Assembly (NCBI RefSeq): GCF_013359755.1
Contig: NZ_JABMCJ010000077.1
Span: forward strand, 186,001-250,000
Direction of reading: 5' to 3'
Source: Tardiphaga robiniae
GTDB taxonomy: Bacteria > Pseudomonadota > Alphaproteobacteria > Rhizobiales > Xanthobacteraceae
Length of the DNA: 64,000 nt
Position numbers and translations under genes: made by a program. Under the pieces are notes generated by a model. The model was not told the DNA's origin. It worked only from the letters and a program-made list of their open reading frames with translations, and ran no database searches. Shown here in pieces: positions 43,260 through 60,130 of the stretch; positions within the stretch are counted from its first letter, which is position 1; each line of letters opens with the position of its first letter.

Positions 43260-43304
43260 TGGTGGGCGCACTAGGGCTCGAACCTAGGACCCGGTGATTA
43301 AGAG
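43260..43304 (-). other. Prophage attachment site: 3' half of tRNA-Lys(CUU)
   Basis: On the minus strand this reads anticodon loop CTCTTAA, stem half TCACC, variable loop GGGTC, a T arm CTAGG-TTCGAGC-CCTAG, acceptor strand TGCGCCC and ACCA, a complete tRNA 3' half with anticodon CUU. To the right (43305-43350) the expected 5' half is degenerate: 'TAGAGCAGGTGA' is still tRNA-like, but nine extra bases separate it from the anticodon loop and neither the acceptor stem nor D stem pairs. This fits an att site where the host keeps the 3' end and phage DNA replaces the 5' half. Confidence 0.7.
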
Positions 43305-44081: not shown

Positions 44082-44430
44082 CCAACTCTCCTTTGATGGC
44101 TGCCGCCCTGGTCTCGGCCTCCTCCTTCAGGCGCTCGGCGTCCTGCGCCTGTGCCTCCTGTTGCTCCAACTGATTGCGCGACCATTCAAGCTCGCCCTTC
44201 AATCGCTTCGTTTCAGCGCGCTCGTCCGACAGGCGATGCCCGATCAGCAGTCCCAGCAGGAACAGCGCGACATAGCCGATGGCCGTGGCGAGCTTCATCC
44301 AGTGATCGATGGTGGGGATCCAACGGATCAACGGCACGTGGCTGACCACGATACAGGCCAGCGCCACGATGCCGACGATCGCCAGCACCAGGTTCGATGT
44401 CGCAACGGTCCAAAACAGATCGACAAGCAT
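43981..44430 (-). CDS. Rz-like inner-membrane spanin or lysis-associated membrane protein
   Basis: The 149-residue protein has two predicted N-terminal helices ('LVLAIVGIVALACIVVSHV' and 'LATAIGYVALFLLGLLIGH'), followed by a charged coiled coil ('DERAETKRLKGELEWSRNQL' onward) and a basic tail. An i-spanin normally has one helix, so this may combine a holin-like hairpin with a spanin stalk or have its N-terminus inside. The start ATG (44430) overlaps the endolysin stop; a GTG three bases earlier is possible. The nested Rz1-like gene in its 3' end supports the spanin call. Confidence 0.7.
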   Translation of the reverse strand: MLVDLFWTVATSNLVLAIVGIVALACIVVSHVPLIRWIPTIDHWMKLATAIGYVALFLLGLLIGHRLSDERAETKRLKGELEWSRNQLEQQEAQAQDAERLKEEAETRAAAIKGELDDYRKSFTGRPDGKCTFTDDDLQRLRQLRRHTR

Positions 44431-45380
44431 CACTGCACCAGGCTGCGGCGATAGATGATGTAACCGCAGCAGGCGATCACGATGAATGCGCAGATCACCG
44501 CCAGCGATCGCCAGTCACTCAACAGGCCGACAACGGAGGTTAGGCCCATGCCGGCTGTCGCCTGGGTAATCCGGCTCTTGGCCAGGCGCCAAAGCGCGGG
44601 AACGCCGCCTGCACTCTCGTCGGTGTCGCGGGTGCCGATCGGCGCGGCGTAGTCGGTGCCGGGCGTGACGGGCGCGAGCTCGTCGCCGCCGCCGGCGCTC
44701 TCGTCGCCCTCCGCCGGCGCCGGTGCGTCGTCTGCGATCTCTGCAAAGGTGACCGGCTTGGTGAAGCGCAGCAGCGGCGAGAGATCCCGGCGCAGCTGCT
44801 CCAGCGGAAACAGCGGATTGGTGTCGACCTTGCGACCCGGCGAGATCAGCCAGTGGGTGACGATCTCCTTGATGCCGTAGCTCTTGCACAGCCCCTCGCA
44901 CAGATCATGCACCGCTGCGACCTGCGCATCGGTATAGGCGAGCCAGAAGCCGTCGCCGTGCGCTGCCGTCTTGGCGCGCTTCACGACCAGCGACGGATCC
45001 TTGTTGGTGTCATAGGTGCCGACGCCCTTGTAGACGCCAGGCGAGACCACCTGCAGCTTGCCCGGATTGACGATCTCGATGCCGATCGAGAAACCGTTGA
45101 GCAGCGGACGCCCGGCCCAGATCGACTGACCGGCATGCCAGGCCTTGACGTTGAATGGCACCAGCTGCGTGATCTTGCCGTCGCGGCCGATCACCACATG
45201 CGCCGACACCTTGCTGATCGGATCGGTCAGCCAGGAAATCGGGCCGCTGTCATTGAGGCCCGACGCCGTATCGTGCAGCACGATATATTCGGGGACGAGC
45301 TTGCCGCCGATATTCGGACTGGCCTTGAAAGGCAAAGGCACGCCGCTGCGATAGCCGCGGCCGTTCTGAATAGCGATCAT
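44430..45380 (-). CDS. Endolysin: N-acetylmuramoyl-L-alanine amidase (Amidase_2) with C-terminal membrane anchor
   Basis: Residues about 25-200 of this 316-residue protein form an Amidase_2 domain: zinc ligands His36 ('YIVLHDTAS'), His176 and Asp186 ('VTHWLISPGRKVDTNP'), plus 'SAHVVIGRDGKITQLVPF'. Residues 215-260 are an acidic, Gly/Ala/Pro-rich linker, and residues about 292-310 ('SLAVICAFIVIACCGYIIY') are a single transmembrane helix followed by Arg-Arg. The enzyme cuts the bond between MurNAc and the stem peptide. There is no N-terminal signal. A C-terminal anchor is unusual for an endolysin: it would tether the enzyme to the membrane after or during holin action. Overlaps rlpA-like and Rz-like neighbours. 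Confidence 0.88.
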   Translation of the reverse strand: MIAIQNGRGYRSGVPLPFKASPNIGGKLVPEYIVLHDTASGLNDSGPISWLTDPISKVSAHVVIGRDGKITQLVPFNVKAWHAGQSIWAGRPLLNGFSIGIEIVNPGKLQVVSPGVYKGVGTYDTNKDPSLVVKRAKTAAHGDGFWLAYTDAQVAAVHDLCEGLCKSYGIKEIVTHWLISPGRKVDTNPLFPLEQLRRDLSPLLRFTKPVTFAEIADDAPAPAEGDESAGGGDELAPVTPGTDYAAPIGTRDTDESAGGVPALWRLAKSRITQATAGMGLTSVVGLLSDWRSLAVICAFIVIACCGYIIYRRSLVQ

Positions 45381-45739
45381 GGGACGACCTCAATGGTGAC
45401 AGGCCCGACGCCGGCGGCGACGAGATCGAGGGAGCGGGCAATGCCGAGAGAGACATCGAGTGTGCGCGGCGGTTGGAGCCGATGAGACGGACCGCGATCG
45501 TTGACACGGCATACGGCCGTGCGGCCGCGATAGGTCACGCGCAGCAGTGTGCCGAAGGGGTAAGTGCGATGGGCGCAGGTGCGGCCGAGCGGGTCGAAGC
45601 GCTCGCCGTTGGCCGTATGCGTTCCGCTTTCGGAACCGTAATAGCTGGCAACATCGCCCGCGAACGCATGGGGCGAGAGAGCGGACAGGAGAAGTCCACC
45701 AAAGACCCAGCTACAAATCCGTGACGTGATAAGTCGCAT
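45377..45739 (-). CDS. RlpA-like double-psi beta-barrel protein
   Basis: A 120-residue secreted protein with signal peptide (cleavage after 'SPHAFA') followed by a complete RlpA double-psi beta-barrel: 'VASYYGSESGTHTANGERFD', 'CAHRTYPFGTLLRVTYRG', 'AVCRVNDRGPSHRL' and 'LDVSLGIARSL'. The Asp in 'NDRGP' and the His in 'CAHRTYPFG' are the conserved pair of RlpA lytic transglycosylases, which cut glycan strands lacking stem peptides. Following amidase action on the same wall would make it useful, and its gene overlaps the amidase gene by four bases. It lacks the SPOR domain of host RlpA. Confidence 0.88.
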   Translation of the reverse strand: MRLITSRICSWVFGGLLLSALSPHAFAGDVASYYGSESGTHTANGERFDPLGRTCAHRTYPFGTLLRVTYRGRTAVCRVNDRGPSHRLQPPRTLDVSLGIARSLDLVAAGVGPVTIEVVP

Positions 45740-45801: not shown

Positions 45802-46044
45802 TCACGCCAGGCCGAGTGCGACCTTCAGGTCGTCGACCGTCAACCCCGCAGCAGCGAGACGCTCGGCGACTGTCAGTTCCGCCGGCGGCAGCGCCGCCAT
45901 CCGTACGACTTCAGCCTCGATCGCCGCGTCGGTTGGCCGCTGGATATCGGCGCTTAGCCATTCGAGCGTCGCGAGATCGCCACTGTCGAGCAGCGTCCAC
46001 TCCGCGTCCGGGCACAGGCTGGCGATCGCGCTAGGAAGGCTCAT
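45802..46044 (-). CDS. Small phage tail-associated protein (XkdW-like)
   Basis: From the ATG at 46044 the 80-residue protein reads 'MSLPSAIASLCPDAEWTLLD' then 'LATLEWLSADIQRPTDAAIE', a pattern like the XkdW/tail-fibre-associated small proteins ('LEW.d..IpkPt..EI'), and ends with a leucine-rich helix 'LTVAERLAAAGLTVDDLKVA'. The start overlaps the stop of the fibre gene. It is probably a fibre chaperone or a small tail component; this is inferred from position and pattern. Confidence 0.7.
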   Translation of the reverse strand: MSLPSAIASLCPDAEWTLLDSGDLATLEWLSADIQRPTDAAIEAEVVRMAALPPAELTVAERLAAAGLTVDDLKVALGLA

Positions 46045-47852
46045 GACATCAACTCCTCGACCTTCATGCCGCCATTGCCCCCGGAGGTGTTTTCCGGGAA
46101 GCGGGTGGTGTTGGTAGCTTGCGCCTTGATCTTGATCATATAGGCCGGCGTGGTCGTGTTGGGCGCGTCCAGCCATTCGCCGGACAAGGGACCGACCAGT
46201 GAGGCCGACGCAACATTCAGAAATTCGATATATTCGGGACCTATTTGCGTGGCTCCGCGATGCAGCCCGGCATAGACCGCCGCCGACGAATTTGCGCCGC
46301 TCAAACCGCCCCACCAGCTCACCTTGGCGATATTTGCCGCGCTCTTGAGCGTCGGCGAGACTGTCACACCGGTGTTTTGGTAACTGGTCGCCGTCGTCGA
46401 TGTCGTCGTCGACGTCAGCATCTGTGTCACCTCACCGACCGGCTCGCCGGGCTTCGGAACGCCTGGGCCGTAAAGCTGCATCCATGACGGTGCGATGCCC
46501 CAGGTGCCAACAGCCGCAAGGCCCGCTTCATAGGAAGCGACGCCGATGATGCAGTAATATTTCGAGGCGACGGCTGTGCCGGTATAGAACGTGCCGGCAT
46601 TGTCGGCCCCGCCAGCGCCGCCTTCTGCCGTGGATGAGGCCGGGAACGCTTCGTTGAGCCCGGAGAGCACCGTGCCGGTCCAGCAGTTCTTGAAGCCGAG
46701 CCGGACGGTGCCGGCGTCGTCGAACGCAACGAGCCACAGATGAAACGCCACACTGTTGATAGCGCCCGCAGACGACCCCGACGATATAACGATTGAAAGA
46801 GCGGCGGTCACGGCGCGGATGACGTAGCCGCCGCCACCGGTGTTGAATACGAAGAACACGGGATCCGCAGAGGTCGGGTCGGTTCCTGCGAGCGTCTTGA
46901 CGGCATATGTCGCGGCACCGCCAACGCGGCTTTCGACGAACGTGCCGTTGATCATGCCGACGCGCGCCCCCAGCGCCGAAGGTGCAAGCGTCTGCGCGGT
47001 CACTGCGCCGGCAGCGACCGCGGCACCCGCCGTTGACGACACGAGCTTCCAGCGCGCGTCAGTCCCGTCATATCGCAACAGCGCAGCCTGCTTGCCGGCA
47101 AGGGTGACATCGTTGCCGAAATCAAAGCGATTGGCGGCCGTCGATCCGGCATCGGCATTTTTGAGCACGAGCGGATTACTGCCGACATTGATGATCATCT
47201 TCATCGCGCCGTCGCGCGGATCGACAAGACCCGTGAGATTGCGCGAGGCATCCGTGGACAGGCGCAGCGTGGTCGCGAGCGCAACGCTGGTCGGCGCATA
47301 ATCGTTCGTGTTCGCCGTGATCTGCGCAGGCGATATGACGCCCGTCAACAACAGCTCTTGCGGGATGGTGGCGAACTTGACACCGCCGGAGGTCCGCATC
47401 CAACGGCTGTCGGTCGTCGAATACTGGATCTCGACCGCAGCGTTCGGCCGCATGACAATGTCGGCCTCGAACAGAAACCGATTGGCCGCCGTCGACGATG
47501 CCGAGCTGTTCGCGAGCGTGATCTCGAACGATCCGCGATTGATCAGTTTGATGTTGCGCCCGAACGCGCCGCCGGCGATGCCGGTGATCGTACGCGCCGC
47601 GTCCGAATTCAGCAAAATGGTTTCCGCGATGGATAGATCTGTTGGATTGTAGTCGTTCTGGTTGGCCGTGATCTGCGCTGGGATGAGCGGGTAGCTATAG
47701 CCCCAACGCTTATGCAGGTAGCCGCCAAGTGTAGCGCCGTCGCCCATGCGCAGAGCTTTGAGGGTCTGATCCCACCACAACTCACCGTCGGCGGGCGTTC
47801 CAGCCTGACAGTTGGTGCGCGTGTCGCGGCGACGCTGGACGATGATGCTCAT
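46041..47852 (-). CDS. Phage tail fibre/receptor-binding protein with tandem repeats
   Basis: The 603-residue protein begins with an Mtd-N/tail-fibre-like head domain ('IVQRRRDTRTNCQAGTPADG' and 'ALRMGDGATLGG'). Two tandem domains follow at residues about 57-151 and 174-268, each starting 'PAQITANxNDYxPT' and ending 'T/GTDxRW', offset by 117 residues. The C-terminal 300 residues are Ser/Thr/Gly-rich with short strands, typical of a receptor-binding tip. It probably trimerises and attaches through the T7-gp17-like adaptor encoded just upstream, whose stop overlaps its start (ATGA). Confidence 0.8.
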   Translation of the reverse strand: MSIIVQRRRDTRTNCQAGTPADGELWWDQTLKALRMGDGATLGGYLHKRWGYSYPLIPAQITANQNDYNPTDLSIAETILLNSDAARTITGIAGGAFGRNIKLINRGSFEITLANSSASSTAANRFLFEADIVMRPNAAVEIQYSTTDSRWMRTSGGVKFATIPQELLLTGVISPAQITANTNDYAPTSVALATTLRLSTDASRNLTGLVDPRDGAMKMIINVGSNPLVLKNADAGSTAANRFDFGNDVTLAGKQAALLRYDGTDARWKLVSSTAGAAVAAGAVTAQTLAPSALGARVGMINGTFVESRVGGAATYAVKTLAGTDPTSADPVFFVFNTGGGGYVIRAVTAALSIVISSGSSAGAINSVAFHLWLVAFDDAGTVRLGFKNCWTGTVLSGLNEAFPASSTAEGGAGGADNAGTFYTGTAVASKYYCIIGVASYEAGLAAVGTWGIAPSWMQLYGPGVPKPGEPVGEVTQMLTSTTTSTTATSYQNTGVTVSPTLKSAANIAKVSWWGGLSGANSSAAVYAGLHRGATQIGPEYIEFLNVASASLVGPLSGEWLDAPNTTTPAYMIKIKAQATNTTRFPENTSGGNGGMKVEELMS

Positions 47853-48689: not shown

Positions 48690-51293
48690 CTATCGGCCCG
48701 AGAGCACCGCCCCGAAGTCCGGCGCCCGGCGCGCTTCCGTCTGGCCCGGCGGCAGCCAGTAGGTCTGACCCCAGTCTTTCTTCGCCTGTGCCTCGATCCG
48801 GCTGAAGCGCTCGCGCGCGCGCGGATCCGCCATCAGCGCCAGTTGATCCATCACGCCGCGCTGGAACGCCAGGCGCGTGAACCATAGCGACGAGCCCGGG
48901 ATATGCCGGCCGAGGGCATACAAGGCATCGCCTGCGAAGTGCGTCTCGTTGCCCTTCCCCGCCTGCTGGATGTTCTTGATGACGAAATCGCCAAGGATGC
49001 TTTCCGCCGACGCCGCCAATGGCCCGGCCATGGTCGCCGCCCAGCTGTTGCCCTGCTTGGTCTGATCCAGAAACAGGATGTCGCCGAACACGCCGAAGCC
49101 GCCGCCCTGCAGCGTCGCCTTGCCCCAGGCGCGCAGCCCGTTGCCCGTGGTCGGATCCAGCGACAGCGGATCGCGGCCGCTGGCGATCTCCTTGGTCTGC
49201 ATCGAGACGACGCCCAGCGCCGTCATGGCGGCGAAGGCGAGCGCAGAATGGCCGAGCCGGGTGCCGTCCCAACCGCGGGCGGCCGCGCGCGAGAAATGCA
49301 TCATGACGAAGGTCGCCGGGAACGAGCGATACATCGACACGGCGCGGCGCGTTTCGCCGCCGAGCGAGCCCGGTTTGCTGTCGCCGATCATCATCGCGCG
49401 CGTCACCGGATCGCCTTCGATCACGGCGTAGTCCATTTCGGTGTCGATCATGCGCTGGAATTTATCGGCCGCAGCAATATGCGCCTGCGTGCCCCCTTCG
49501 CGGATATCAACCGGCCGCAACAGGACGGCATCGGGACGAGGTGCATGCGGCTCTGTGCTGCGGATCAGGTTCCAGTCAGCATCGGCTATGCCGTAGCGCG
49601 ACAGTGCGCCGCGGAATTCATCGGACAGGCCGGCGAAGTCGGTACCGCGCTCGCGCGCCACATGCGCCATCATCTCCAGCCCGAAGGCGCCGCGCAGCAT
49701 CGCGGTCCATTTGCGCAGGCCCGATGCACGGATGTTGGCACTGGAGAGTTTCTGCGCCAGCCCCGTGCGGATCTCTTCGCCCATGATGCGATCGCTCTGC
49801 CCGGCAGCATGCGCCAGGCTGTCGAATACCAATCCTTGCTGCGCAATAAAGACCTCGCTGCCCTTCTCGGTCATCATCGAGACGGCGCGATTGATCGTGT
49901 TCATGACCGGCAGGCCGTTGAAGCGAGCGACCATCGCAAGCGAGCCGGGATCCGTGAATGACGAAATGATCGCGCTGCCGAGCTGGGTGGCGGACAACCA
50001 GTGCCGGGCATCGGCCATCGCGGTCGCGAACGTCGTGTTGACCGGCGTCTGATTGGTGCCGGTCACCTCGGCATAGAGATCATCGAACAGGCGCTTTTCG
50101 AGCTTCACCCGGCTTTCAATGCCGCGATTAGCCTTGACGGTCGCCGCGATCTCTTTCGCCGTCGCTTTGTCGCCGGCCTTGACCGACAGACGCGCGGCCT
50201 CGCGATCAAGAAGGTTGTGGATAAACTGCTTCGTTGCGTCCGGGTTCGGGCCAAGCACCCGCAGCGCCGCGATGTCATCGGCCATGCCCTTGATGTGTCC
50301 GGTCATGGTATCGAACACGCTCTGGTGCGTGCCGACGGCCTCCGCCACGGCCAGCCAGCTTTCGGCATCCTTCCATGCAAAGAAGCGTGCCATGTCGCGC
50401 TGATTGGCCAGCATCGGCCGACCCGACCGCGCGGCCGTCACCGCGCCCTGCGGTCCGTCGATGATATCGGCCGTAACGCTGTCGAGAAGCTGGGCAAACC
50501 GCGCATCGCCCATCGGCTCGCCAGTTGCCCAGTCCAGCATGTCGCGACGGTCGATATTGTCCCGCACCAATTGCTTGAAGCGATCGGCGCCGAGCGCGCG
50601 CGCCTTGTTGGCGTCGATCGACGGGTTCGGCAGCCGCCACGTCTCCCGTTCACCCAACGCGCCGCCGGCGGCGCTATACTGATCCGCAAGGCTCTTGGCG
50701 ACGTCGCCCCATGCCTTTGCCGCTGTCGCCGCTTCGCCCTCGGCACCTTCGCCATAGAGCGCGCGCAGCACGTCCAGCTCGCGCGTCGCCTCCGGCGCGA
50801 AGCCAAGTTTCTTCGGCCGCAGATATTCCATCGCATCGGCGAAGGCCGCATGCGCGACGCCGCGGATGTTGCGCGCAAGATAATGGACGTTGTTCCAGCC
50901 GGAGATCTCGAACGGGTCGCGGGCCAGCAGCGAGCGCACGGCAAAGCCGAGTGTGGTCTGATCCTTGCCGAGCGTCGGCGGCGCCTTGTTGCCGAAACCG
51001 AGATCGCCAGGCGTGGCGCGCAATTCAACCACCTTCGCCTCATAGGCGGCCGCGGCGCGCATGACGCTGGATTGCGCAACGATGCTGCCGCGCGTGAGAT
51101 CCGCCTTGCGGGCAGCTTCTGCCGTTGCGATCTCCGCGGCATCGAGCGCCGCCTGCCGGGCACCTGCGGCGTCGCCGAGCGTCGCCTGATGCTCCGCTTC
51201 GAAGGCGTTCATCATGTCGAGGATCTGGCGGCCGGATCGCGACGATACCTTGCCGGCGGAGATCTTGCGCACGAAACATTTGCGAGCGGTCAA
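48690..51293 (-). CDS. Large internal virion/ejection protein
   Basis: An 867-residue, mostly helical protein with no enzymatic motif I can recognise. It has an Ala-rich N-terminal coiled coil (about 25-90), a central region with 'ATQLGSAIISSFTDPGSLAM', and conserved blocks seen from memory in internal virion proteins of podoviruses, such as 'RRAVSMYRSFPATFVMMHFS' and 'LGHSALAFAAMTALGVVSMQ', the latter hydrophobic enough to insert in a membrane. By position, between the SLT/ART proteins and the fibres, it is probably ejected with the DNA to form part of the trans-envelope channel. Its start overlaps the stop of the ART-containing gene. Confidence 0.8.
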   Translation of the reverse strand: MTARKCFVRKISAGKVSSRSGRQILDMMNAFEAEHQATLGDAAGARQAALDAAEIATAEAARKADLTRGSIVAQSSVMRAAAAYEAKVVELRATPGDLGFGNKAPPTLGKDQTTLGFAVRSLLARDPFEISGWNNVHYLARNIRGVAHAAFADAMEYLRPKKLGFAPEATRELDVLRALYGEGAEGEAATAAKAWGDVAKSLADQYSAAGGALGERETWRLPNPSIDANKARALGADRFKQLVRDNIDRRDMLDWATGEPMGDARFAQLLDSVTADIIDGPQGAVTAARSGRPMLANQRDMARFFAWKDAESWLAVAEAVGTHQSVFDTMTGHIKGMADDIAALRVLGPNPDATKQFIHNLLDREAARLSVKAGDKATAKEIAATVKANRGIESRVKLEKRLFDDLYAEVTGTNQTPVNTTFATAMADARHWLSATQLGSAIISSFTDPGSLAMVARFNGLPVMNTINRAVSMMTEKGSEVFIAQQGLVFDSLAHAAGQSDRIMGEEIRTGLAQKLSSANIRASGLRKWTAMLRGAFGLEMMAHVARERGTDFAGLSDEFRGALSRYGIADADWNLIRSTEPHAPRPDAVLLRPVDIREGGTQAHIAAADKFQRMIDTEMDYAVIEGDPVTRAMMIGDSKPGSLGGETRRAVSMYRSFPATFVMMHFSRAAARGWDGTRLGHSALAFAAMTALGVVSMQTKEIASGRDPLSLDPTTGNGLRAWGKATLQGGGFGVFGDILFLDQTKQGNSWAATMAGPLAASAESILGDFVIKNIQQAGKGNETHFAGDALYALGRHIPGSSLWFTRLAFQRGVMDQLALMADPRARERFSRIEAQAKKDWGQTYWLPPGQTEARRAPDFGAVLSGR

Positions 51294-53821
51294 AACGGTG
51301 CCTCCTCTGCAGCGCCGACGATGCAGGCGTTGAGTTCATCGGCGGCGCGCGCGTCTTCCTCGACCTCGCGAAGCGCGTCGCTGGCTTTCAGCGTGCGCAT
51401 GGTGCCGTCCGGATTGATGAGAGTAATTTCGAGATCGCCGCCGGCATCTTCGAGCGCGCGGGCGGCATCGGCCGCAAGGGCCGGGTCGCCTAGCTGGCGC
51501 GGCGTTCCAGCGCCATCGCCAGCGTCTCGTGACGCTGCGCCATCTTTTCCGCTGTCGCCTTGTCCGGCGCGTTCGGCTTGCCGGCGTTGCTGCGGATCAG
51601 GCGTGCCATCGCGCGATGCTGTGCCGAGTTCATCAGCGTCCCAGCCTGCGATTTTTCCGAGTTCGGCATCTGCTTGTCTGGCCGCAGCCAGTCCCTCGTA
51701 GCGTTCCGCGTCCTCCATGATAGCACGTTCATAGGCGGACAACAGATCGGTTTCTTTTTCCTGGCGGACGATTTGTACCACCCGATCGGCAATGGCCTGG
51801 TCGATGCGGGTGTCGCCGGCGCCGGTGTCGTATAGTTCCTTTTCCAGCGCGCCGACGATGGCATGCGCTTCCTGCCCGTCGTCGATGGCGGCTTCCCGGG
51901 CCTGGCCGGGCTTGTAGAGCTTTTGCCCGCGGTTCTCAGCGTCGAGCCGATCCAGCAGATCGTTCGGCGTCAGGCCGAGATCGCGGCGCCCGGCGAGCCC
52001 AAGCGTGCCGTTGTCCGGTCCGTCCATGTCGCGCGGATCGACCAGATAGCCCGCATCTTTTGCCGCGCGCAGCGCGTCATCGAGCGACTTTCCACCCTTG
52101 CGGATCAGCGGGCCGAAGCCCGGCACGAATGGCCCGCGCGCGGTGCCGTAGATCGCTGCCAGTTCGGGATCAGGCTTCAAGCCGCCCTGGCTGACGATGA
52201 ACTCATTGAGCGAGAAGGTTTCGGGGTCCGCTGCGGCGCGACCGCGGGGAGCTTTTGATTTTAGCTCGGTCACCCGACCATCGGCATCCGGAATAAACCT
52301 ATATGTCTTGATGACATATTCGGCGGGATTACCTGCAAACGTCCAAGGCTCAGTCCGCGTCCGCACCAGTTTGAATTCGCCCGGAGGCAGCATCCGCTCC
52401 AGCTCACCAGCGTTCGCTCCAGCGTGCGGGCCAGCATCAAATACTTTTGTGTTCGCGGGAACGATGATTTCACTCAATGGCAAGCGTGGCGGACCGCCTC
52501 CGTCCTGGGGCATCCTTTCTAGCTCGACGTCATTTCGCGATGTTGCAAATGACTGTGCCCCGAGCCGATCTGAAACGGAGGTCGCCTGTAGCTTTCTTTG
52601 CAGATCCGGTGCCCCGGGCCACTCACCACGATAGAATGTGGTTTCGGCCTGCAGCGGCTGACCGAAGCGATACACCGCTTCTGGCAGCAGCGAGAGGTTA
52701 GCGCCGGCGTCGGCACCTGACGCCCATTTACTGACCTCGGCCAGCACGTCGGCGTCGGAAGGGCCGGCCATCTTGCTAGGTGATCCGGCCAATTCGATCC
52801 GGTCTGCCGCGTCGTCCACCTTGACCGCGTGATCGAGCCGACCCTCCGCCGTATCGACCGGCGACATGACGTCGACGACGTGGTCGCGCTCGGCAAGATC
52901 TCCGGCGGCGTGGAAATCGTCCGGCGCAAACTGCTCGACCGACCGCTGCGGCGTCAATGCACCGGCCGGAGCCGGATCAGGAGATGCCGCGGGCGCCGTG
53001 CCGGACTCACCGATGCGTGTTTCGGCCGCCGGGGGCACGATGACGCCCTCGGCCGGCGCGGATGGTTGTACGGCCTCCGCAGGCCGTTCCCCGCGCAAGG
53101 CGCGAAGCCCGCGGCCGGCGACATGGAATAGGCCCGACAAAGCGGCGCCGCCGACGCCGGCTTCGAAGATATTGCCCGCGGCCCGGCCGAAACCGCTGTC
53201 GACGCCCAATCGCTCGCGCTGCGGCTCGATGACGGGCTCGACGATCGCCTGTGCGGCAGCATTGGCGCCGGCCTCGCGGCCGATGGTGGCGAGCAGCGAG
53301 GCACCGCGCGCGGCACCGAGCGGTGCGGTCGCGACCATGGCGGCGACGTTGACGGGGTCCGCCGCCTGGCGCGCGACGCCGGCGATGAAAGCCGTGGCAT
53401 GGGCTGACAGACCATAGGTGGCGTTACCGATGTCGTCGGCATCCGCCTCGATCTTCTGCGCCTTCTTCGCGGCGTTGAGCCGGATGTCCTTCAGCGGCTC
53501 GATCGTCTTGCGCTTGTCCTCCGGCAGCGTATCGGCGAGTGAGCCGAGCAGCCGGATATCCTCGGCCTGGGTGACACCGGCGCCAAGCTTGACGCCCATC
53601 TGTGCGGCATAGTCCGCGATCGGGCGGCCCGATGCGGTTTCGATGGCGGTGACGAGATCCGCGCGCGCGTCGCCGAACGGCTGACCGACGCCGGCGATAG
53701 TATCGAGCGAAGTCCGCTTCCACTCGCTGTCCCACACCTGGCCGAGCGTCGCCGGCTGCTGACCACCAGGCGAGCGCGACAATTCGGCGAGATAGCTGGA
53801 TGCGTCGTTTTCCCAACTCAT
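51290..53821 (-). CDS. Internal virion protein with embedded ADP-ribosyltransferase domain
   Basis: The 843-residue protein has a helical N-terminal part (residues 1-245, with a glycine/alanine-rich membrane-active stretch about 140-240), a Pro/Ala-rich linker (about 250-300), an ADP-ribosyltransferase domain (about 390-510) and a charged helical C-terminal region. The ART signature is complete: Arg398 in 'TTFYRGEWPG', the Ser motif in 'AQSFATSRND' (424-428), and the ExE pair Glu473/Glu475 in 'GELERMLPPGEFKLVRT', the usual 'ExExLLPxxxxF.V' strand. It lies between the SLT internal protein and another ejection protein and overlaps both by four bases. The domain could modify a host protein on entry, as T4 Alt does. 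The target is unknown. Confidence 0.85.
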   Translation of the reverse strand: MSWENDASSYLAELSRSPGGQQPATLGQVWDSEWKRTSLDTIAGVGQPFGDARADLVTAIETASGRPIADYAAQMGVKLGAGVTQAEDIRLLGSLADTLPEDKRKTIEPLKDIRLNAAKKAQKIEADADDIGNATYGLSAHATAFIAGVARQAADPVNVAAMVATAPLGAARGASLLATIGREAGANAAAQAIVEPVIEPQRERLGVDSGFGRAAGNIFEAGVGGAALSGLFHVAGRGLRALRGERPAEAVQPSAPAEGVIVPPAAETRIGESGTAPAASPDPAPAGALTPQRSVEQFAPDDFHAAGDLAERDHVVDVMSPVDTAEGRLDHAVKVDDAADRIELAGSPSKMAGPSDADVLAEVSKWASGADAGANLSLLPEAVYRFGQPLQAETTFYRGEWPGAPDLQRKLQATSVSDRLGAQSFATSRNDVELERMPQDGGGPPRLPLSEIIVPANTKVFDAGPHAGANAGELERMLPPGEFKLVRTRTEPWTFAGNPAEYVIKTYRFIPDADGRVTELKSKAPRGRAAADPETFSLNEFIVSQGGLKPDPELAAIYGTARGPFVPGFGPLIRKGGKSLDDALRAAKDAGYLVDPRDMDGPDNGTLGLAGRRDLGLTPNDLLDRLDAENRGQKLYKPGQAREAAIDDGQEAHAIVGALEKELYDTGAGDTRIDQAIADRVVQIVRQEKETDLLSAYERAIMEDAERYEGLAAARQADAELGKIAGWDADELGTASRDGTPDPQQRRQAERAGQGDSGKDGAASRDAGDGAGTPRQLGDPALAADAARALEDAGGDLEITLINPDGTMRTLKASDALREVEEDARAADELNACIVGAAEEAPF

Positions 53822-56568
53822 GGCGCTACACCGTCAGTGTCGAGCCGGGTCTGCTGGATCCGGTCATTGATCTCGGCGCGGGTGGCGGCGCGTCCTCGCT
53901 GATAGGCAGATAGCTGCCCGGGCGCCGTGTTCTTCAGCATCGACATGTCGATCACCAGCGGGCGATTTGGCACGTTCGGATCCGGCGCCTGCCAGACCGG
54001 CACTTCCTTGCCGCCGGCGCCTTGCGGCAGCACCACGACATAGCGCGAACCGCCGGGCTCCAGCTGCTTCAGCACCGCGCGCGACGACAGGAACGATCCG
54101 CTGTAAGGCTTGCCGCTCCGATCGTAGGCGCCGCCGAACTGATCTAACGACGTGTCAGTGAGCGCATCGAGCGCGCCGGTGAACTGCCCAGCGGTCATGC
54201 CGGGAGGTGCCGCGGTCTTGACGCCGTTGCGCTTGACGATCGGCCCGGCCACGTCCTCGATGGCCTTCTCGATCGCGCCGCTGTCGGTCGCGTCATAAAG
54301 CGCACTGCCACGGCGGGCGACGTAGAGCGAGAGCGCCGCGTCGATCACCGAGCCCTGCTGATCCGGCGACACATAGATCTGTCCGCCGAGCTTGTTTGAC
54401 AGCGCGGTGCGGACGTCGCCCGTCTTGTTCTTGACGCCCTCGGTCTGCGCCAGCTGCTGGCCGCGGAAGATCTCGCGCGCCAGCTCCGGCCGGGTGCGGG
54501 CAATCTGGCCGACAAACTGCGTACCGCCATCGGTGCCGGCGATCTGCTTCAGTGTGTCGCGATAGACGTTCTCCGGCAACGACACCGCAAGCGACTGCAC
54601 GATGCGGAATTTGTCGTCGGCGCCGGCGCTGTCGTACCGTTCCTTGAGTGCGGTCGCCTCCTCCGGCTTCAGCGCCGCGGCCGAGCCGAGATAGATCTTC
54701 GCCGACGTCGCCGCCTGCTGCCCGCGCACTGCCAGCGTCTCGCGGAATTGCGGGCTGTCCGGATTGGCCGTCGGGTCGATCGCAACCGGCTGATAATAGC
54801 CGCCGCGCTCACCCAGCGAGATCGGATCGGTGTCGCGGCGTTTTGCGACTTCATCGCGAACCGCCTTGAACGCCTTGAGCTGCTGCGTCATCGCCGTCGT
54901 CACGTTCGGCGACGACGCGACCGCGCTCTCCAGCTGCGACACCATGCCATCGAGCATCGCCGGCGCCGTCTTCCAGGCCTGCTGAATATAGGGATGCATC
55001 TGCAGCGCCTGGTCGAGCGCGCGGATGTTCTCGGCCGCGGCGCGGTCGCCCTTGTCGGCACTGGCCTGCTGGACCGCACGCCAGCCGGCAATGCGCGCAG
55101 GATCGGCATTAAGCCCTTGCTGCAGGATGTTCGGCAGCTCATCGGTCGCCGCGATCGACGACGCCTGTACTGCCAAATTGCGCGCTTCCTGCGCCTGCTG
55201 CTGCGTGATGACGGCGCCGATGCCGTTGACGGCGCGGCCGAGCGACGCCGGCGACGAAAACGCCACATCCATCGGCGCGCCGGAATTCTTGTAAAGATTG
55301 TTGACGTAGTTCCTTGTTTCCTTGAAATCGATGACGCTGGCGAGTTGCGCGGGCGTGAAGGTCACACCGAACTGCGCTTCCGCCGCCGCCTTCCAGCGGT
55401 CGGCATTTGCGGGCCCGGCGTTGTAGGCGGCCGCGGCAAGGCCGATATTGCCTTCATAGCGCACGCCCATTTGCCGGAAATAGGTTCGGCCGAGTTGCAG
55501 ATTGAGGCCGGGATCGGACTTCAAGCGTGCTTCGAGATCGGCATCGGACAATGCGGCAATCTCGGTCTTGCCGAGCGACCTCGCTACATCGCGCGCTGTG
55601 CCGGGCAGGATCTGCGCCAAACCAATCGCGCCCTTGCTGGACACCAGATCCGGCTGCCCTGTGTCGTTCTCCAGCTTGCGGATCCCGGTGTCGAAGATCT
55701 TATCGAGCTGATCAGGTGTCGACACCCGGCCGACAGCCAGCGCGGTCCCGACCGGATCGAAGGACGCGCGCGGCACCCATGTGGTCAGTTGATTGTCATC
55801 CGCGCGGCCGATCGCCTGCTGGATGTAGGCCTGGCGCGTGACCGGATCGAGCGACGGAAACGCTTTCGGATCGTTCAGCCGCCGCAGCGCCGTGGCCGGG
55901 TCCGACTGAACGACCGACATGGCGTCGGCATTGTCGAGCTGCTGCTTGAACTTCAGACCCCGCGCGGTCGCGGTCTTGGCATCGATCCAGCCCGCACCAT
56001 AGAGCCGGCTTACTTCTCCGGCATATTCGTCGATCACCGCAACCTTGGCGACGTCAGATGGTGCGGTCACCGCGCGGCGCAGCGCGTTGCCTTCGAACGT
56101 ATCCAGCGACGACACGTTAATATCGCGCTGCTTGGTGAACGACGACGCCCGTACCGTGCCCGCGCTCTCGATTGATGTCCGCTGCATCTGCAGCGCGGTC
56201 CGTGAGCGCAACTGAGGATCGTCGATGCCTTCGAGGCGCAGCGACTTCTGAGCGTCCAGCTCGCCGCGAAACCGTTCCTCCGACGTCGCATAGTCAGGAT
56301 CGTTGAGATATTTCTGGGTCAGCTTGTCGTTGTCGTCGAGGAACCCCGACAGCGCCTCTGTCGCCTTGGTGTGCTGGATGCCTTCGTTCAGCTTCGCGGC
56401 TACCGTGGCCAGCTCGTTGCCAAGCGCGCTGGTCGCCGCACCGACGGCCGTCGACGCAGGTCCGCCCGACAGGTTCGGGACCGAAATCAGCGGCGTGGCC
56501 GTAACGGCCGGGATCGGCCCGTTGCCGGGCGACACGCGCGATTGATAGTCTGGGAGTTCGCCTGCCAT
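53818..56568 (-). CDS. Internal virion protein with lytic transglycosylase (SLT) domain, T7 gp16-like
   Basis: A 916-residue protein. Residues about 45-260 are helical; residues about 290-440 form an SLT domain with the catalytic Glu300 in 'GIRKLENDTGQPDLVSSKGA', then 'IGLAQILPGTARDVARSLG', 'LQLGRTYFRQMGVRYEGNIG' and 'LAAAAYNAGPANADRWKAA'. The remaining 470 residues are long helices and a terminal domain ('SGKPYSGSFLSSRAVLKQLE'). Such proteins sit in the capsid, are ejected first and cut the peptidoglycan to let the genome pass. Upstream neighbours encode the gp14-like and nozzle proteins, matching the T7-like order. Confidence 0.88.
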   Translation of the reverse strand: MAGELPDYQSRVSPGNGPIPAVTATPLISVPNLSGGPASTAVGAATSALGNELATVAAKLNEGIQHTKATEALSGFLDDNDKLTQKYLNDPDYATSEERFRGELDAQKSLRLEGIDDPQLRSRTALQMQRTSIESAGTVRASSFTKQRDINVSSLDTFEGNALRRAVTAPSDVAKVAVIDEYAGEVSRLYGAGWIDAKTATARGLKFKQQLDNADAMSVVQSDPATALRRLNDPKAFPSLDPVTRQAYIQQAIGRADDNQLTTWVPRASFDPVGTALAVGRVSTPDQLDKIFDTGIRKLENDTGQPDLVSSKGAIGLAQILPGTARDVARSLGKTEIAALSDADLEARLKSDPGLNLQLGRTYFRQMGVRYEGNIGLAAAAYNAGPANADRWKAAAEAQFGVTFTPAQLASVIDFKETRNYVNNLYKNSGAPMDVAFSSPASLGRAVNGIGAVITQQQAQEARNLAVQASSIAATDELPNILQQGLNADPARIAGWRAVQQASADKGDRAAAENIRALDQALQMHPYIQQAWKTAPAMLDGMVSQLESAVASSPNVTTAMTQQLKAFKAVRDEVAKRRDTDPISLGERGGYYQPVAIDPTANPDSPQFRETLAVRGQQAATSAKIYLGSAAALKPEEATALKERYDSAGADDKFRIVQSLAVSLPENVYRDTLKQIAGTDGGTQFVGQIARTRPELAREIFRGQQLAQTEGVKNKTGDVRTALSNKLGGQIYVSPDQQGSVIDAALSLYVARRGSALYDATDSGAIEKAIEDVAGPIVKRNGVKTAAPPGMTAGQFTGALDALTDTSLDQFGGAYDRSGKPYSGSFLSSRAVLKQLEPGGSRYVVVLPQGAGGKEVPVWQAPDPNVPNRPLVIDMSMLKNTAPGQLSAYQRGRAATRAEINDRIQQTRLDTDGVAP

Positions 56569-56570
56569 GG

Positions 56571-57251
56571 TCAGCCCGCAATGCCTGCAATGGGATCAAA
56601 TCCCGGAACCGAAATTGACGGCATCGAGAAACCGCCCATGCCCTTGCCCATCGACGCCGCACCGGTCAGCAGCGACGACAACGCACCGATGCCGGCCGCG
56701 GTGCCGTCGTCATTGGACTTCGTGAACAGCGACCGCGCCTTGAGCTGCGCCGTCATCTTCTGGCCGAGCGATGAGACCACCTGCCCTTGCGCGCCTGCGG
56801 CCTGGCCGAGAATGCCGGCCTTGCGAGAACGAGCATCGGCCGCTTCCACAGCGGCATTGGCGTCGGTGATATCGAGATCCTGCGCGATACGGCCGGCCGT
56901 GATCGCCTGCATCAGCAGCGGCGACCCGAAGGTCGGATCGATATTGCGGCTGGCGAATTCAGACCGCTGCGCGGCGAGCGTGACGCGGCCCGTCTCGCTG
57001 ATGCGGCTTTTTTGCAGACGCGCCTTCGCGAACGCGAAATCCTCGCCCATGCCGGCTATCTCGGCCTGTGTCGTCAGCAGGCGGCCGCTTGTCTGCGCAG
57101 TCTCGGCATTGAGGCCATAGAGATCGGCCTGCTGCAGCAGTAACTCGGCATCGGCCTTGTCTGCCCAGGCCTGCGAAGCGCCAGCGGTCAGCTTGCCGTA
57201 GGCCGACATCGCCGTGCCCGCCATCGCCACCCCGATCGTGAACGGGTTCAT
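56571..57251 (-). CDS. Internal virion protein, gp14-like
   Basis: The 226-residue protein begins with a short hydrophobic/glycine-rich segment ('FTIGVAMAGTAMSAYGKLTA') followed by an alanine-rich coiled coil with 'GRVTLAAQRSEFASRNIDPT' and 'FGSPLLMQAITAGRIAQDLD', and ends in a glycine/serine/methionine-rich tail. This layout is that of the small internal/ejection proteins (T7 gp14, P22 gp7 type). It starts within the stop of the nozzle gene (TGATG) and is followed by the SLT protein. Function is inferred from layout and position. Confidence 0.75.
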   Translation of the reverse strand: MNPFTIGVAMAGTAMSAYGKLTAGASQAWADKADAELLLQQADLYGLNAETAQTSGRLLTTQAEIAGMGEDFAFAKARLQKSRISETGRVTLAAQRSEFASRNIDPTFGSPLLMQAITAGRIAQDLDITDANAAVEAADARSRKAGILGQAAGAQGQVVSSLGQKMTAQLKARSLFTKSNDDGTAAGIGALSSLLTGAASMGKGMGGFSMPSISVPGFDPIAGIAG

Positions 57252-59488
57252 CAGTCATCCTCCTCGACTTCGATGACCGGCGACATGCCAAGCAGGGTCA
57301 GCGGCATTGCGTCGTCGCAGACGAGCTCGATCTGCGCTTCGTCGCGCACATTGCCCTCGATGTTCATACGGAACTGGCCTGAGATCAGGGGCGGCGCGTC
57401 GTCGTAATCGTTTGCGCCGGTCTCGACGAGATCTTCCCAGCTCTGCGCATCGGCATTGATCTGCGCAGCCGTTGCGTCGTCAGGTAGGGTTTCCTCCGGA
57501 TCATAGGCGCGGATCTTGCCGCCGCCGGTATGCAGCAAGTGCACATCGACCTCGGCCACGCGCTTCTGCTTCGCCGTGGTGCCCTGCAGGTTGCGCGGCA
57601 GATCGCGCAGATAGCCGCGCACCGGCAAGCCCACCGTGATGTCGTTCGACGGGCGATCAAGCTGGATCGTACCGGACGCAACCGTCTTGCGGCTCTGCAT
57701 CGCGCCGTCAGCGAATACCGCGACCTCCTGGCCTTCGAGATGGCCGAGCTGGGTGATCTGCGTAATGTTGGTGCCGGTCACCCGCAGCCCGCAGTCGACA
57801 AACCAAGCGCCTTGTGCGGTCGGGGCGTCTGGATTCTGCGGCTCAAAATAATCGGCAAGCTGCTCGACATAGCGCTTGGTGACGCCGCCGATGGTACGAC
57901 GGATGATGAAATAGACTTCGTCGACGCCACTGGCGACGCCTGGAATCGCCGCGACATTCTCGACGAAGCAATTGACGCGGGGATGTCGCGCGAAGGCGAT
58001 GATTTCCTGCTCCGGCATGAAGGTCGCGGAGGCGAGCGTGCCGTCATCCATCGCCATCCACAACACGCGATGCGGATCGCGCTGCCATGCCATTTCAGCG
58101 ACACCGCGGCCGAAGATGCTGCGCGCGGTGACCGACAGCTCCTGCGTCTCCAGCAGCTGCTTCTGGCGGTCATACTTGCCGTAATGCATGCGCTTGCCGG
58201 TTCTGCCGATGAACATGGCGCCGCCATCGACGCGGACAGGGACATGCGGTTCAGAACCTTCCGACGTCTCCGGAAATGCGTCGATGGTCTTGGGTGTCAG
58301 CGGATCGAACACATTCGGACCGCGCAAAACCCACTCACCGTCCGCCGTTCCCAGAATGAGCGCCCCCGACGGCAGCGCCCATTTGATCTCGACGAGCGAT
58401 GCATCGGGCGCACGCAGACGGATCGCGATCGCGTCGTCGTCATCAGCCAGCCCAAGATCGTGGTCGGATGGATCATCGACGGCGGAGAGCCACCCCTTGT
58501 CGCCGCGGAAGAAGCCAAGACGTGATTTGACGAAGGCCACCACTTCCGGCCAGCCCGCCGTCGACGTCCAGGCCGGCGGATACCAGCGAAAGCTGCCGGC
58601 GCCCATCAGCGAATCCGGCATTCGACCGATCACCGTCCCGGTCGCGCTGTTGGTATTACTCACAGCGGTGATGCGAACATAACCGTACCCGGAATGCAGA
58701 TAGCGCCACGTCTGGTAATTATTGCCGGCAGTGACGTCGCCCTCGGTATGCACCGGCGCATTCGGACCGCTGTCCTTGCCCGACTGCATCGCCTGATACA
58801 CATTGCCGTTCCAGCGACGCTGCGCGCTCAGAGCGACCGTCGCCTCCAGCGCACTCCATTGCGGCGTCAGCGAAAGGTCGCGGTCGTCGATGCGGATGAC
58901 GCCGCCGACCATGCCGGTATTGAACGGAGAGCCCATCCCAGTCAGCGTAATGTTTCCGGTCGAGGCACTGGTCTGGATGGTCCGCGCAACGTCAAGGTTT
59001 TGCGCATCGACCGGGCCATTGTCGGGCGAGTAGACATCGACGGCCCAGTTGGTGTGATCGTTGCGCGTCAGCCGCTGCGGCTGCTTCAGCGACGTCACGT
59101 AGAGCTGATTGCCGGCCGGCGCCGATCGCAGGCTCGCCATATCAGCCTCAACCCATGGAACATTGAATTCGAAGATCGATGTGTTCGGGTTCTGGACAAA
59201 GCCGCCCTCGCGCACCAGGCGCGTAACACCACCGTTGACGACAAGCGTGTAATAGTCGTTTGAGGCGACCCGGAATGGCAGCAGCCGGCCGCGCTGCAGA
59301 CTGTCTTTGACTTCCAGTACAAACCGCGTGCCAGGCGCGCGCGTGACGACGCCCTCGACCAGCGTGACGAAATTTTCCTGCTTTTCGAAAGCGATCTGAT
59401 ACTTGGCAGTGTCCGCGCGGCCGAAGAGTTTTTCCCCGAACTCGCCGCCTGCAAATGAAATCCGGTCGATCAGTCCACGGGCGCCCAT
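57251..59488 (-). CDS. Tail tubular protein B / nozzle protein (gp12-like)
   Basis: A 745-residue beta-rich protein with the typical opening 'ISFAGGEFGEKLFGRADTAK' and 'NFVTLVEGVVTRAPGTRFVL', seen in podovirus tail-tube/nozzle proteins ('GE.sp.l.gR.Dl.kY..g...l.Nf.v.pqGg..rRPGt.fv'). Later 'MFIGRTGKRMHYGKYDRQKQ' and 'RYVEQLADYFEPQNPDAPTA' form further conserved blocks. It follows the gp11-like adaptor by nine bases. Together they build the short tail. Confidence 0.85.
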   Translation of the reverse strand: MGARGLIDRISFAGGEFGEKLFGRADTAKYQIAFEKQENFVTLVEGVVTRAPGTRFVLEVKDSLQRGRLLPFRVASNDYYTLVVNGGVTRLVREGGFVQNPNTSIFEFNVPWVEADMASLRSAPAGNQLYVTSLKQPQRLTRNDHTNWAVDVYSPDNGPVDAQNLDVARTIQTSASTGNITLTGMGSPFNTGMVGGVIRIDDRDLSLTPQWSALEATVALSAQRRWNGNVYQAMQSGKDSGPNAPVHTEGDVTAGNNYQTWRYLHSGYGYVRITAVSNTNSATGTVIGRMPDSLMGAGSFRWYPPAWTSTAGWPEVVAFVKSRLGFFRGDKGWLSAVDDPSDHDLGLADDDDAIAIRLRAPDASLVEIKWALPSGALILGTADGEWVLRGPNVFDPLTPKTIDAFPETSEGSEPHVPVRVDGGAMFIGRTGKRMHYGKYDRQKQLLETQELSVTARSIFGRGVAEMAWQRDPHRVLWMAMDDGTLASATFMPEQEIIAFARHPRVNCFVENVAAIPGVASGVDEVYFIIRRTIGGVTKRYVEQLADYFEPQNPDAPTAQGAWFVDCGLRVTGTNITQITQLGHLEGQEVAVFADGAMQSRKTVASGTIQLDRPSNDITVGLPVRGYLRDLPRNLQGTTAKQKRVAEVDVHLLHTGGGKIRAYDPEETLPDDATAAQINADAQSWEDLVETGANDYDDAPPLISGQFRMNIEGNVRDEAQIELVCDDAMPLTLLGMSPVIEVEEDD

Positions 59489-59497
59489 GCAGCGCCC

Positions 59498-60130
59498 CTA
59501 TCGGAAACGGCGCGAGCGACCGCGACGGGCTGCGACCCAGCCAGTGTCGGGACGCGACGGCGCGCGCGCCTTTTCCTTGCTGTCGATGCCGCCAGCGACG
59601 CTCAGTTTCTGCTGCGCCGTCGCACGCAGGCTGTCGGCATAGCTGGTCGACTTGCCGCATTTGCGAGCGCACAGCGCCGCCAGCTCGTACCCGAACTGTT
59701 CGATGAACAGCGTATCCCAGAGCCGGACCTGCTCGACGCGGCGCGTATAGCAGACGTTCGGCGCCGTGATCGAGCTGACAAGGATAGTTGCCTCGACGGC
59801 CACACCGCCGATACTGACGACGGCGTTCTCGATCGCCCAGCTGTCGTCATCGGCGCCCTCAATGAAGCGGACGCGGATGCAATCCGGCGGCATCGGGTAG
59901 CGGATCTTGAGCGTGCCGTTACTGGCTGTCACATCCGCCGCCGGCGTCGCCCAGGCCGTGGCAAAATTCCACCATTTCAGGCGAAGCGTCGCATCACGCG
60001 CCATGGCGAAGAATTGCCGGACCGCGCGCGTGCGTGTGTTGTTGTCCGACAACGTCGCAATCTCGCGCTGACCGAGATGGCCCATCGCGAGATTGGCAGC
60101 GTATTCTTCCGTCCCGCCGGTAGCGGTCAT
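59498..60130 (-). CDS. Tail tubular protein A / adaptor (gp11-like)
   Basis: The 210-residue protein has the adaptor features 'EEYAANLAMGHLGQREIATL', 'NNTRTRAVRQFFAMARDATL' followed by 'LKWWNFA', a beta insertion ('IRYPMPPDCIRVRFIEGADD'), and 'RLWDTLFIEQFGYELAALCA' with a helical end, then a basic tail 'RRGRSRRFR'. Homologues dock under the portal and connect it to the nozzle. It is immediately upstream (in transcription) of the nozzle gene. Confidence 0.82.
   Translation of the reverse strand: MTATGGTEEYAANLAMGHLGQREIATLSDNNTRTRAVRQFFAMARDATLRLKWWNFATAWATPAADVTASNGTLKIRYPMPPDCIRVRFIEGADDDSWAIENAVVSIGGVAVEATILVSSITAPNVCYTRRVEQVRLWDTLFIEQFGYELAALCARKCGKSTSYADSLRATAQQKLSVAGGIDSKEKARAPSRPDTGWVAARRGRSRRFR

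What the first reader, a model, noticed from the sequence alone, without database searches (positions are those of the whole stretch)
52292..52654. ADP-ribosyltransferase domain embedded in a predicted phage ejection protein
The 843-residue internal virion protein has, at residues about 390-510, the full R-S-E signature of ADP-ribosyltransferases: Arg398 in 'TTFYRGEWPG', the 'SFATS' serine motif at 424-428 and the ExE pair (Glu473, Glu475) in 'GELERMLPPGEFKLVRT'. Its gene is translationally coupled between the SLT-carrying (gp16-like) gene and another large internal protein, so the ART is probably carried in the virion and injected with the DNA. T4 Alt is the known precedent for a virion-borne ART in a long-tailed phage; a short-tailed alphaproteobacterial prophage with the ART fused into the ejection apparatus looks new to me. 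It could modify host RNA polymerase, translation factors or defence proteins on entry.
Basis: partly seen in the sequence, partly recalled or inferred. Interest (0 to 1): 0.82.

Follow-up and report, generated by a model that had tools for sequence, protein, structure and literature searches.

The report
Swappable enzyme in phage ejection protein
A dormant virus in a bacterial chromosome carries, in the middle of a protein that it probably injects into new hosts, what looks like an ADP-ribosyltransferase, and related viruses carry other enzymes or nothing recognisable at the same place.

Summary
The 843-aa gene (window 51290-53821, minus) sits in the internal-virion block of an apparently complete ~40.5-kb prophage of the short-tailed type. 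R398, SFATS 424-428 and E473/E475 lie where stated.

Homology tools do not recognise the domain: Pfam, PHROGs, PDB sequence, HMMs, hhalign and single-sequence AlphaFold gave nothing decisive. A three-block R/S/ExE model built from 18 Alt/ModA/ModB-type proteins scores it 29.6; 160,000 shuffles reach at most 25.2, the best other tile 11.8. It scores within the range of genuine ARTs held out of training. I judge an R-S-E ART likely, not proven.

The stronger finding is architectural: the ART lies in a discrete slot. In the nearest relative the flanks are 81% identical, yet the slot is unrelated. Slot GC3 is 59% against 75% in the flanks. Related proteins carry HYD-type ARTs (four loci), a GH108 muramidase (one) or no recognised domain (five) there.

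Virion-linked ARTs are known (T4 Alt, MuF fusions including prophage-borne Bxa, a podoviral polyvalent protein). An Alt/Mod-type ART in this kind of protein goes against a published statement. New variant of a known kind.

The parts
51290..53821 (-). 843-aa ejection / internal virion protein gene carrying the putative ART
   Evidence: gene order and homology of the flanks to proteins in related phages; 11 of 15 relatives' loci hold a homologue of the 867-aa neighbour (weakest L039, E 3e-4)
52793..53821 (-). conserved N-terminal part (residues 1-343), with two mildly hydrophobic stretches near 145-181 and 214-236
   Evidence: 81% identical in G180 (residues 1-343), 62% in L014 (3-350), 42% in L038 (1-252), 28% in L047 (23-233); the G180 homologue hits phrog_342 internal virion protein at 1e-8; hydropathy
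52256..52792 (-). variable slot (residues 344-522)
   Evidence: no blastp match to G180, L014 or L038 between matching flanks; no blastn match between gene nt 997 and 1609 against G180; GC3 of residues 341-523 is 0.590
52277..52654 (-). putative R-S-E ADP-ribosyltransferase domain (residues 390-515)
   Evidence: three-block motif test; negatives
52628..52630 (-). R398 (R of R-S-E) in TTFYRG
52538..52552 (-). SFATS, residues 424-428 (serine motif, atypical)
   Evidence: T4 ModB SFTTS
52397..52405 (-). E473-L474-E475 (ExE)
   Evidence: same ExExMhPxG pattern as T4 ModB EQEWMIPIG
51293..52255 (-). conserved C-terminal part (residues 523-843), including the RGRAAADP domain, to which no Pfam model matched
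   Evidence: alignment A1
53818..56568 (-). 916-aa internal virion protein with SLT transglycosylase domain
   Evidence: PF01464 and phrog_992
48690..51293 (-). 867-aa virion structural protein, next gene downstream
   Evidence: phrog_684, E 1.8e-136
56571..57251 (-). 226-aa internal virion protein
   Evidence: phrog_418, E 3e-5
57251..60130 (-). two tail genes (57251-59488 phrog_376, 59498-60130 phrog_394; the latter also phrog_9239 'tail tubular protein')
43260..43304 (.). 45-bp prophage attachment-site repeat (3' end of tRNA-Lys); the other copy is L084:5706-5750

Best explanation
The gene encodes an ejection (internal virion) protein of a temperate T7-like short-tailed phage. Between a conserved N-terminal part and a conserved C-terminal part it carries a mono-ADP-ribosyltransferase of the R-S-E (Alt/ModA/ModB-like) kind, acquired as a cassette. 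The protein would be packaged, leave the capsid with the other ejection proteins at infection, and deliver the ART into the cytoplasm. There it would use host NAD+ to modify a host protein before phage genes are expressed, as T4 Alt does to RNA polymerase. Shown: gene order, intact reading frame, prophage ends, slot replacement between conserved flanks, compositional contrast, co-linear R/S/ExE blocks. Inferred: ART fold and activity, packaging, injection, target.
For: Three-block ART model: 29.6 against 0 of 160,000 shuffles and 0 of the 3,491 other tiles (the top 3 of 3,494 tiles are copies of the domain itself). Trained on Alt alone: z 5.0, 0 of 3,000 shuffles, while 10 held-out ModA/B proteins give z 1.2-9.8; trained on Mod alone: z 6.3, 0 of 3,000, while 8 held-out Alts give z 4.3-8.0. 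Late-gene context: SLT protein, phrog_684, phrog_418, tail genes, head-tail connector PF12236, integrase next to tRNA-Lys, 45-bp att repeat. Slot replacement. GC3 0.590 in the slot against 0.752 in the flanks. In 4 of 15 relatives' loci the related protein carries an HYD-type ART upstream of the shared C-terminal domain (PF18760, E 9e-7 to 8e-6).
Against: No Pfam hit at E up to 10, no PHROG, no PDB sequence hit. Alt and Mod HMMs are not significant: 5 and 6 of 2,000 shuffles score as well and several background ORFs higher. hhalign gives 1.2% (Alt), 6.6% (Mod) and 0.4% (HYD) probability, with 2, 0 and 14 of 100 shuffles as good. The AlphaFold model is unusable (pLDDT 36.5). No convincing homologue of the domain was found in viral contigs, phages, plasmids, genome contigs, 198 family or 347 order genomes, so conservation of R, S and E cannot be tested. 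The serine motif is atypical. Part of the C-terminal flank is also low in GC3 (0.634 for residues 721-843), so the contrast is not confined to the slot. The PF18760 hits are all below the gathering score. Nothing shows packaging.
Confidence: 0.56

Rival explanations
1. The slot holds an ART-derived or unrelated domain without catalytic activity, for example a structural or binding module of the ejection complex that keeps parts of the R-S-E pattern by descent or by chance.
For: Profile and fold tests fail; SFATS lacks the STS of the Alts; five of the 12 relatives scanned have no recognised domain there, so the slot does not need an enzyme.
Against: R and both Glu of ExE with fitting order and spacing; 0 of 160,000 shuffles; a scaffold role would predict conservation, yet the slot is the part without any match in the three closest relatives.
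Confidence: 0.24
2. The ART is active but is not an injected takeover effector: it acts in the producing cell or lysogen, modifies virion proteins during assembly, or is a fitness factor released against other bacteria, as proposed for prophage ART Bxa.
For: T4 deploys ModA and ModB later in its cycle (PMC9503650, passages); the MuF-fused prophage ART Bxa is an antibacterial fitness factor with immunity proteins (PMC11699363, passages and title); no test here distinguishes the place of action.
Against: It is fused inside a protein of the internal-virion block and shares overlapping starts and stops with its neighbours, which leaves no room for an immunity gene directly beside it; a related protein carries a peptidoglycan hydrolase (GH108) at the corresponding place, which fits entry.
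Confidence: 0.15
3. The slot is only a fast-diverging linker and no cassette was exchanged.
For: Ejection proteins diverge quickly and mosaically (PMC8954989, passages).
Against: Abrupt loss of DNA similarity at both edges with 79-81% identity outside, a GC3 fall in the slot, and different enzymes identified in relatives.
Confidence: 0.05

Closest known systems
T4 Alt / ModA / ModB (Alt/VIP2 clade, R-S-E ARTs)
   Same: R, ExE and ExExMhPxG block, order and R-to-S spacing; ModB has SFTTS where the window has SFATS; Alt is carried in the particle (annotation; PMC5512222 passages); an Alt-type ART was found by mass spectrometry of Klebsiella phage virions (PMC13119998, passages)
   Different: no significant HMM or hhalign score; the stretch from S to E is 23 residues shorter than in ModB; here fused inside an ejection-type protein of a short-tailed temperate phage
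Polyvalent proteins with ART-PolyVal / Tox-ART-HYD2 domains (PMC5512222, passages; PF18760), including the N4-like RNAP-ART fusion of Roseovarius Plymouth podovirus 1
   Same: multidomain phage protein presumed packaged and injected; relatives L013, L015, L016 and L017 share the C-terminal domain and carry HYD-type ARTs upstream of it
Alt/VIP2 ARTs fused to MuF head proteins (PMC9503650, passages) and the prophage ART Bxa fused to MuF (PMC11699363, passages)
   Same: ART fused to a virion protein, in Bxa's case in a prophage
   Different: different carrier: an internal-virion (ejection) protein beside the SLT protein, not MuF; no immunity gene directly beside it
T7 gp16 / P22-type ejection proteins and their domain swaps (PMC8954989, passages)
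   Same: position in gene order; swapping of functional domains among ejection proteins is called thematic there (lysozyme activity on gp15-like or gp16-like proteins)
   Different: a putative host-modifying enzyme in an internal slot, rather than a cell-wall enzyme

Membership tests
R-S-E ADP-ribosyltransferase (Alt/ModA/ModB kind) | R, S-motif and ExE in order with family-like spacing, beyond chance | tested here: met
   block borders were drawn after seeing the domain; S-motif atypical
R-S-E ADP-ribosyltransferase (Alt/ModA/ModB kind) | significant profile match to an ART family | tested here: not met
   Pfam E up to 10: none; Alt and Mod HMMs not above shuffles; hhalign 0.4-6.6%
R-S-E ADP-ribosyltransferase (Alt/ModA/ModB kind) | ART fold | tested here: inconclusive
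   AlphaFold single sequence, pLDDT 36.5, pTM 0.20
R-S-E ADP-ribosyltransferase (Alt/ModA/ModB kind) | conservation of R, S, E among homologues | tested here: inconclusive
   no convincing homologue of the domain found
R-S-E ADP-ribosyltransferase (Alt/ModA/ModB kind) | NAD-dependent ADP-ribose transfer | not testable with these tools
   needs purified protein
Ejection / internal virion protein of T7-like podovirus | gene lies in the internal-virion block between tail and fibre genes | tested here: met
Ejection / internal virion protein of T7-like podovirus | homology to a known internal virion protein family | tested here: inconclusive
   indirect only: the window protein itself hits no PHROG; its 81%-identical homologue L036 hits phrog_342 at 1e-8, and so does L016 at 2.5e-14
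Ejection / internal virion protein of T7-like podovirus | present in virions and ejected | not testable with these tools
   needs mass spectrometry
Polyvalent proteins (PMC5512222) | two or more disparate domains in one phage or plasmid protein transferred at invasion | tested here: inconclusive
   one putative enzymatic domain plus two conserved unnamed parts; relatives L020 and L039 look, by eye, like genuine polyvalent proteins, but Pfam shows only weak hits in them
ART-PolyVal / HYD2 (PF18760) | H-Y-D active site and PF18760 match | tested here: not met
   the window domain has R-S-E and no PF18760 hit; four relatives do hit it, below gathering score

The most novel reading that the evidence does not exclude
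This family of ejection proteins has a fixed payload slot: phages exchange different enzymes (ARTs of two different active-site types, a muramidase, unidentified domains) between a conserved N-terminal part and a conserved C-terminal domain. One injection chassis thus delivers different host-modifying or entry enzymes, and reading the slots of related prophages would list the payloads directly.
Probability: 0.45. Interest if true: 0.76.

Novelty: new variant of a known kind. Interest (0 to 1): 0.6.

Why it matters
If right, short-tailed temperate phages use an ejection protein as an exchangeable delivery chassis. The conserved flanks then become a probe for new injected enzymes that profile libraries do not recognise, as here. 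The case also links two ART clades that PMC5512222 keeps apart: the Alt/Mod type and the polyvalent HYD type would both be carried by proteins that share one C-terminal domain. That would make the carried activity (ADP-ribosylation on entry) look like the thing selected, rather than a particular gene. The integrase-bearing prophage makes it testable by induction and virion mass spectrometry.

Tried and rejected
Fold: AlphaFold of residues 355-520 alone and of the HYD-type slot with four sequences (pLDDT 55.3, pTM 0.43) gave models too poor to search; no fold search was run. Homologues of the ART: viral contigs (0 confirmed of 13 stretches), phages (none), plasmids (six hits at E 0.3-8; of the two that I fetched, H53 lies on the strand opposite to a DciA gene and H56 in an unannotated stretch), genome contigs (0 of 31), family genomes (26 of 198 at E <= 0.1 including the window's own; of the 26 other places listed the best, G168 at 3.8e-5, covers 44 residues of an ORF overlapping what looks by eye like a transporter gene; I looked at few of them and treat them as chance), order genomes (1 of 347, its own). 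PF03496 in 190 class genomes rang nowhere, not even in the controls, so it says nothing. The first genome-contig scan, with the C-terminal domain, confirmed 0 of 597 stretches, against what the other searches found.

HMMs from 8 Alts and from 10 ModA/B did not separate the domain from shuffles; hhalign did not either, although 0 of 100 shuffles reached its score against ModA/B. These negatives are why I do not claim membership, only likelihood. The three-block model was made after the HMM failures, with borders drawn by me. The 18 proteins were picked by me from 1,183 (Alt) and 1,036 (ModB) matching records; two further fetched loci, L066 and L080, were left out as partial or short.

Rows dropped before counting '15 relatives' loci': duplicates (L001-L004, L071, L072); L005-L011, which match only within residues 146-255; L037, L040-L046 and L058, where the C-terminal domain is weakly matched or stands in another kind of protein. 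The A1 match in G411 (L035/L045) looks like an antisense reading. L021, L022 (contig end) and L023 were not put through the family scan; L046 was dropped from it for the residue limit.

Considered and dropped: that the G180 slot is a GNAT-like acetyltransferase (my impression by eye; Pfam and PDB sequence searches give nothing useful).

Full report
What is there. The finding lies in an 843-aa minus-strand ORF, window 51290-53821. Upstream is a 916-aa protein with an SLT domain (PF01464; phrog_992), then a 226-aa phrog_418 internal virion protein and two tail proteins (phrog_376, phrog_394); downstream is an 867-aa phrog_684 virion structural protein. The 843-aa gene starts inside the stop of the SLT gene, and the 867-aa gene starts inside the stop of the 843-aa gene. 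Beyond the window the block goes on with a head-tail connecting protein (PF12236, 214.5 bits), a weak terminase hit (phrog_10250, E 7e-4), primase-like proteins and an integrase (phrog_1, E 6e-13) beside tRNA-Lys. A 45-bp exact copy of the 3' end of that tRNA lies at window 43260-43304. The element is therefore an apparently complete temperate prophage of about 40.5 kb (contig 229260 to 269750). That it is short-tailed and T7-like follows from the gene content; the equation with T7 gene order is recalled.

Is it an ART? Ordinary tools do not recognise it: no Pfam at E up to 10, no PHROG, no PDB sequence, AlphaFold pLDDT 36.5. I fetched T4 Alt, ModA and ModB and relatives (8 Alts and 10 ModA/B used). 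HMMs from them give no significant score, and hhalign finds single motifs at 1.2% and 6.6% probability, with 2 and 0 of 100 shuffles as good. I then asked whether the three catalytic blocks occur together, in order and with plausible spacing. A three-block model built from the 18 proteins scores the domain 29.6; none of 160,000 shuffles reaches this (maximum 25.2), and the best of the 3,491 other 166-aa tiles of fetched loci scores 11.8. Trained on Alt alone, the domain has z 5.0 while ten held-out ModA/B proteins have z 1.2 to 9.8 (T4 ModB itself the lowest); trained on ModA/B alone it has z 6.3 while eight held-out Alts have 4.3 to 8.0. The domain thus looks about as ART-like as real ARTs of one T4 family look to the other. 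The block borders were drawn by me after seeing the domain, so the test is not fully independent. SFATS is unusual, though T4 ModB has SFTTS at the same distance from its arginine.

What the relatives show. I searched for the flanks instead of the domain. The C-terminal domain (alignment A1) occurs in 2 of 18 genomes of the genus, 5 of 198 drawn from the family, 6 of 397 from the order and 2 of 385 from the class, the window's own genome included each time; some of these matches are weak. The genome-contig scan confirmed 0 of 597 stretches. I compared 15 distinct relatives' loci by BLAST (rows dropped are listed under Tried and rejected). In 11 of 15 the locus also holds a homologue of the 867-aa neighbour, from 88% identity down to a weak hit (E 3e-4). 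In G180, same genus, the SLT gene is 70%, the 867-aa gene 88% and the two flanks of the ejection protein 81% identical, but residues 344-522 have no counterpart. At DNA level similarity of 79-81% stops at gene nucleotide 997 and resumes at 1609. The G180 gene is broken by a frame change into two ORFs and its slot holds a different, unidentified domain. In L014 the flanks are 62% identical and in L038 about 42 and 41%; the ART has no match in either.

Composition. The slot (residues 341-523) has GC3 0.590 against 0.752 in the rest of the gene. The lowest of 116 183-codon windows over nine late genes starts at residue 361 (0.590; mean of all 0.777, s.d. 0.058). Against a clean border, the far C-terminal part (residues 721-843) is also low, at 0.634, and the eleven lowest windows all lie in this gene.

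Slot contents. Twelve of the 15 relatives' loci were scanned with Pfam. Four (L013, L015, L016 = L002, L017 = L003) have PF18760 ART-PolyVal at E 9e-7 to 8e-6 upstream of the shared C-terminal domain; all four are below the gathering score (27.1 to 30.1 bits against 31.2), but H, Y and D as described in PMC5512222 can be pointed to by eye. L047, a human-faecal phage record, has a GH108 muramidase above its gathering score (31.1 against 21.2 bits; phrog_315 endolysin). Five (L014, L018, L019, L036, L038) have no domain over its cut-off. L020 and L039 are 1,825- and 1,953-aa open frames with an HExxH stretch by eye and only weak Pfam hits (PBECR1 in L039, E 0.086). In 11 of the 15 (all but L036, L014, L038 and L047) BLAST finds only the C-terminal half of the window protein, so 'the same slot' there rests on the order of parts, not on alignable N-terminal flanks. 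The strict replacement between two alignable flanks is shown for G180, L014 and L038, and more loosely for L047.

How it most likely works. The N-terminal part, whose 81%-identical homologue hits phrog_342 internal virion protein, has two mildly hydrophobic stretches (19-residue means up to 1.36). In the T7 model (PMC8954989, passages) gp16 refolds to cross the inner membrane and its C-terminal domain reaches the cytoplasm, where NAD+ is available. I infer that the ART is carried in the virion, enters with the first DNA and modifies a host protein; the target is unknown, and RNA polymerase or translation factors are only analogies to Alt and ModB. That ExE usually goes with arginine as acceptor is recalled, not tested.

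What is known. Virion-linked ARTs are not new. [quoted passage not shown] PMC9503650 (passages) reports Alt/VIP2 ARTs fused to MuF and about 44% of the phage ARTs recovered in head-packaging contexts. PMC11699363 (passages) describes the prophage ART Bxa, a C-terminal fusion to MuF and an antibacterial fitness factor with immunity proteins. PMC13119998 (passages) reports an ART among virion proteins of Klebsiella phages. PMC8954989 (passages) calls domain swapping among ejection proteins thematic. In the library searched, combined ART terms with 'internal virion protein', 'ejection protein', podovirus or prophage and 'virion protein'; among the papers that I opened at the matching passages (PMC5512222, PMC8402733, PMC10386132, PMC11699363, PMC5694885, PMC5384007, PMC13119998) none reports an R-S-E ART inside an ejection protein. 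PMC9404725 and PMC9026906 were seen as listings only, and one search listed 15 of 75 papers, so this is no proof of absence.

Verdict. The more interesting point is that the ART sits in an exchangeable slot of the ejection protein. New variant of a known kind.

Noticed in passing
window 43260-43304 and L084:5706-5750: 45-bp exact repeat of the tRNA-Lys 3' end bounds a ~40.5-kb prophage with an integrase at L084:3734-5056.
   Followed up: yes
L036:10019-12531 (genome G180): The closest relative's ejection gene is broken by a frame change near the slot's end and carries a different, unidentified domain in the slot.
   Followed up: partly
L047:5887-9093: A human-faecal phage record carries a GH108 muramidase in the middle of the related ejection protein.
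   Followed up: partly
L040:8679-9224, L037:7238-9928, L041:877-4236, L042:7295-10729: The RGRAAADP C-terminal domain (no Pfam hit) also occurs, at lower similarity, in a short separate ORF and inside other large proteins.
   Followed up: no
window 46041-47852: Fibre-like protein with a weak match to the Major tropism determinant N-terminal domain (PF18454, E 4.7e-4, below cut-off); not checked for a diversity-generating retroelement.
   Followed up: no
window 43981-45739: Lysis block: amidase (PF01510), a small protein matching phrog_7930 (lipoprotein precursor) and a weak Rz-like spanin hit (phrog_89, E 0.0011).
   Followed up: no
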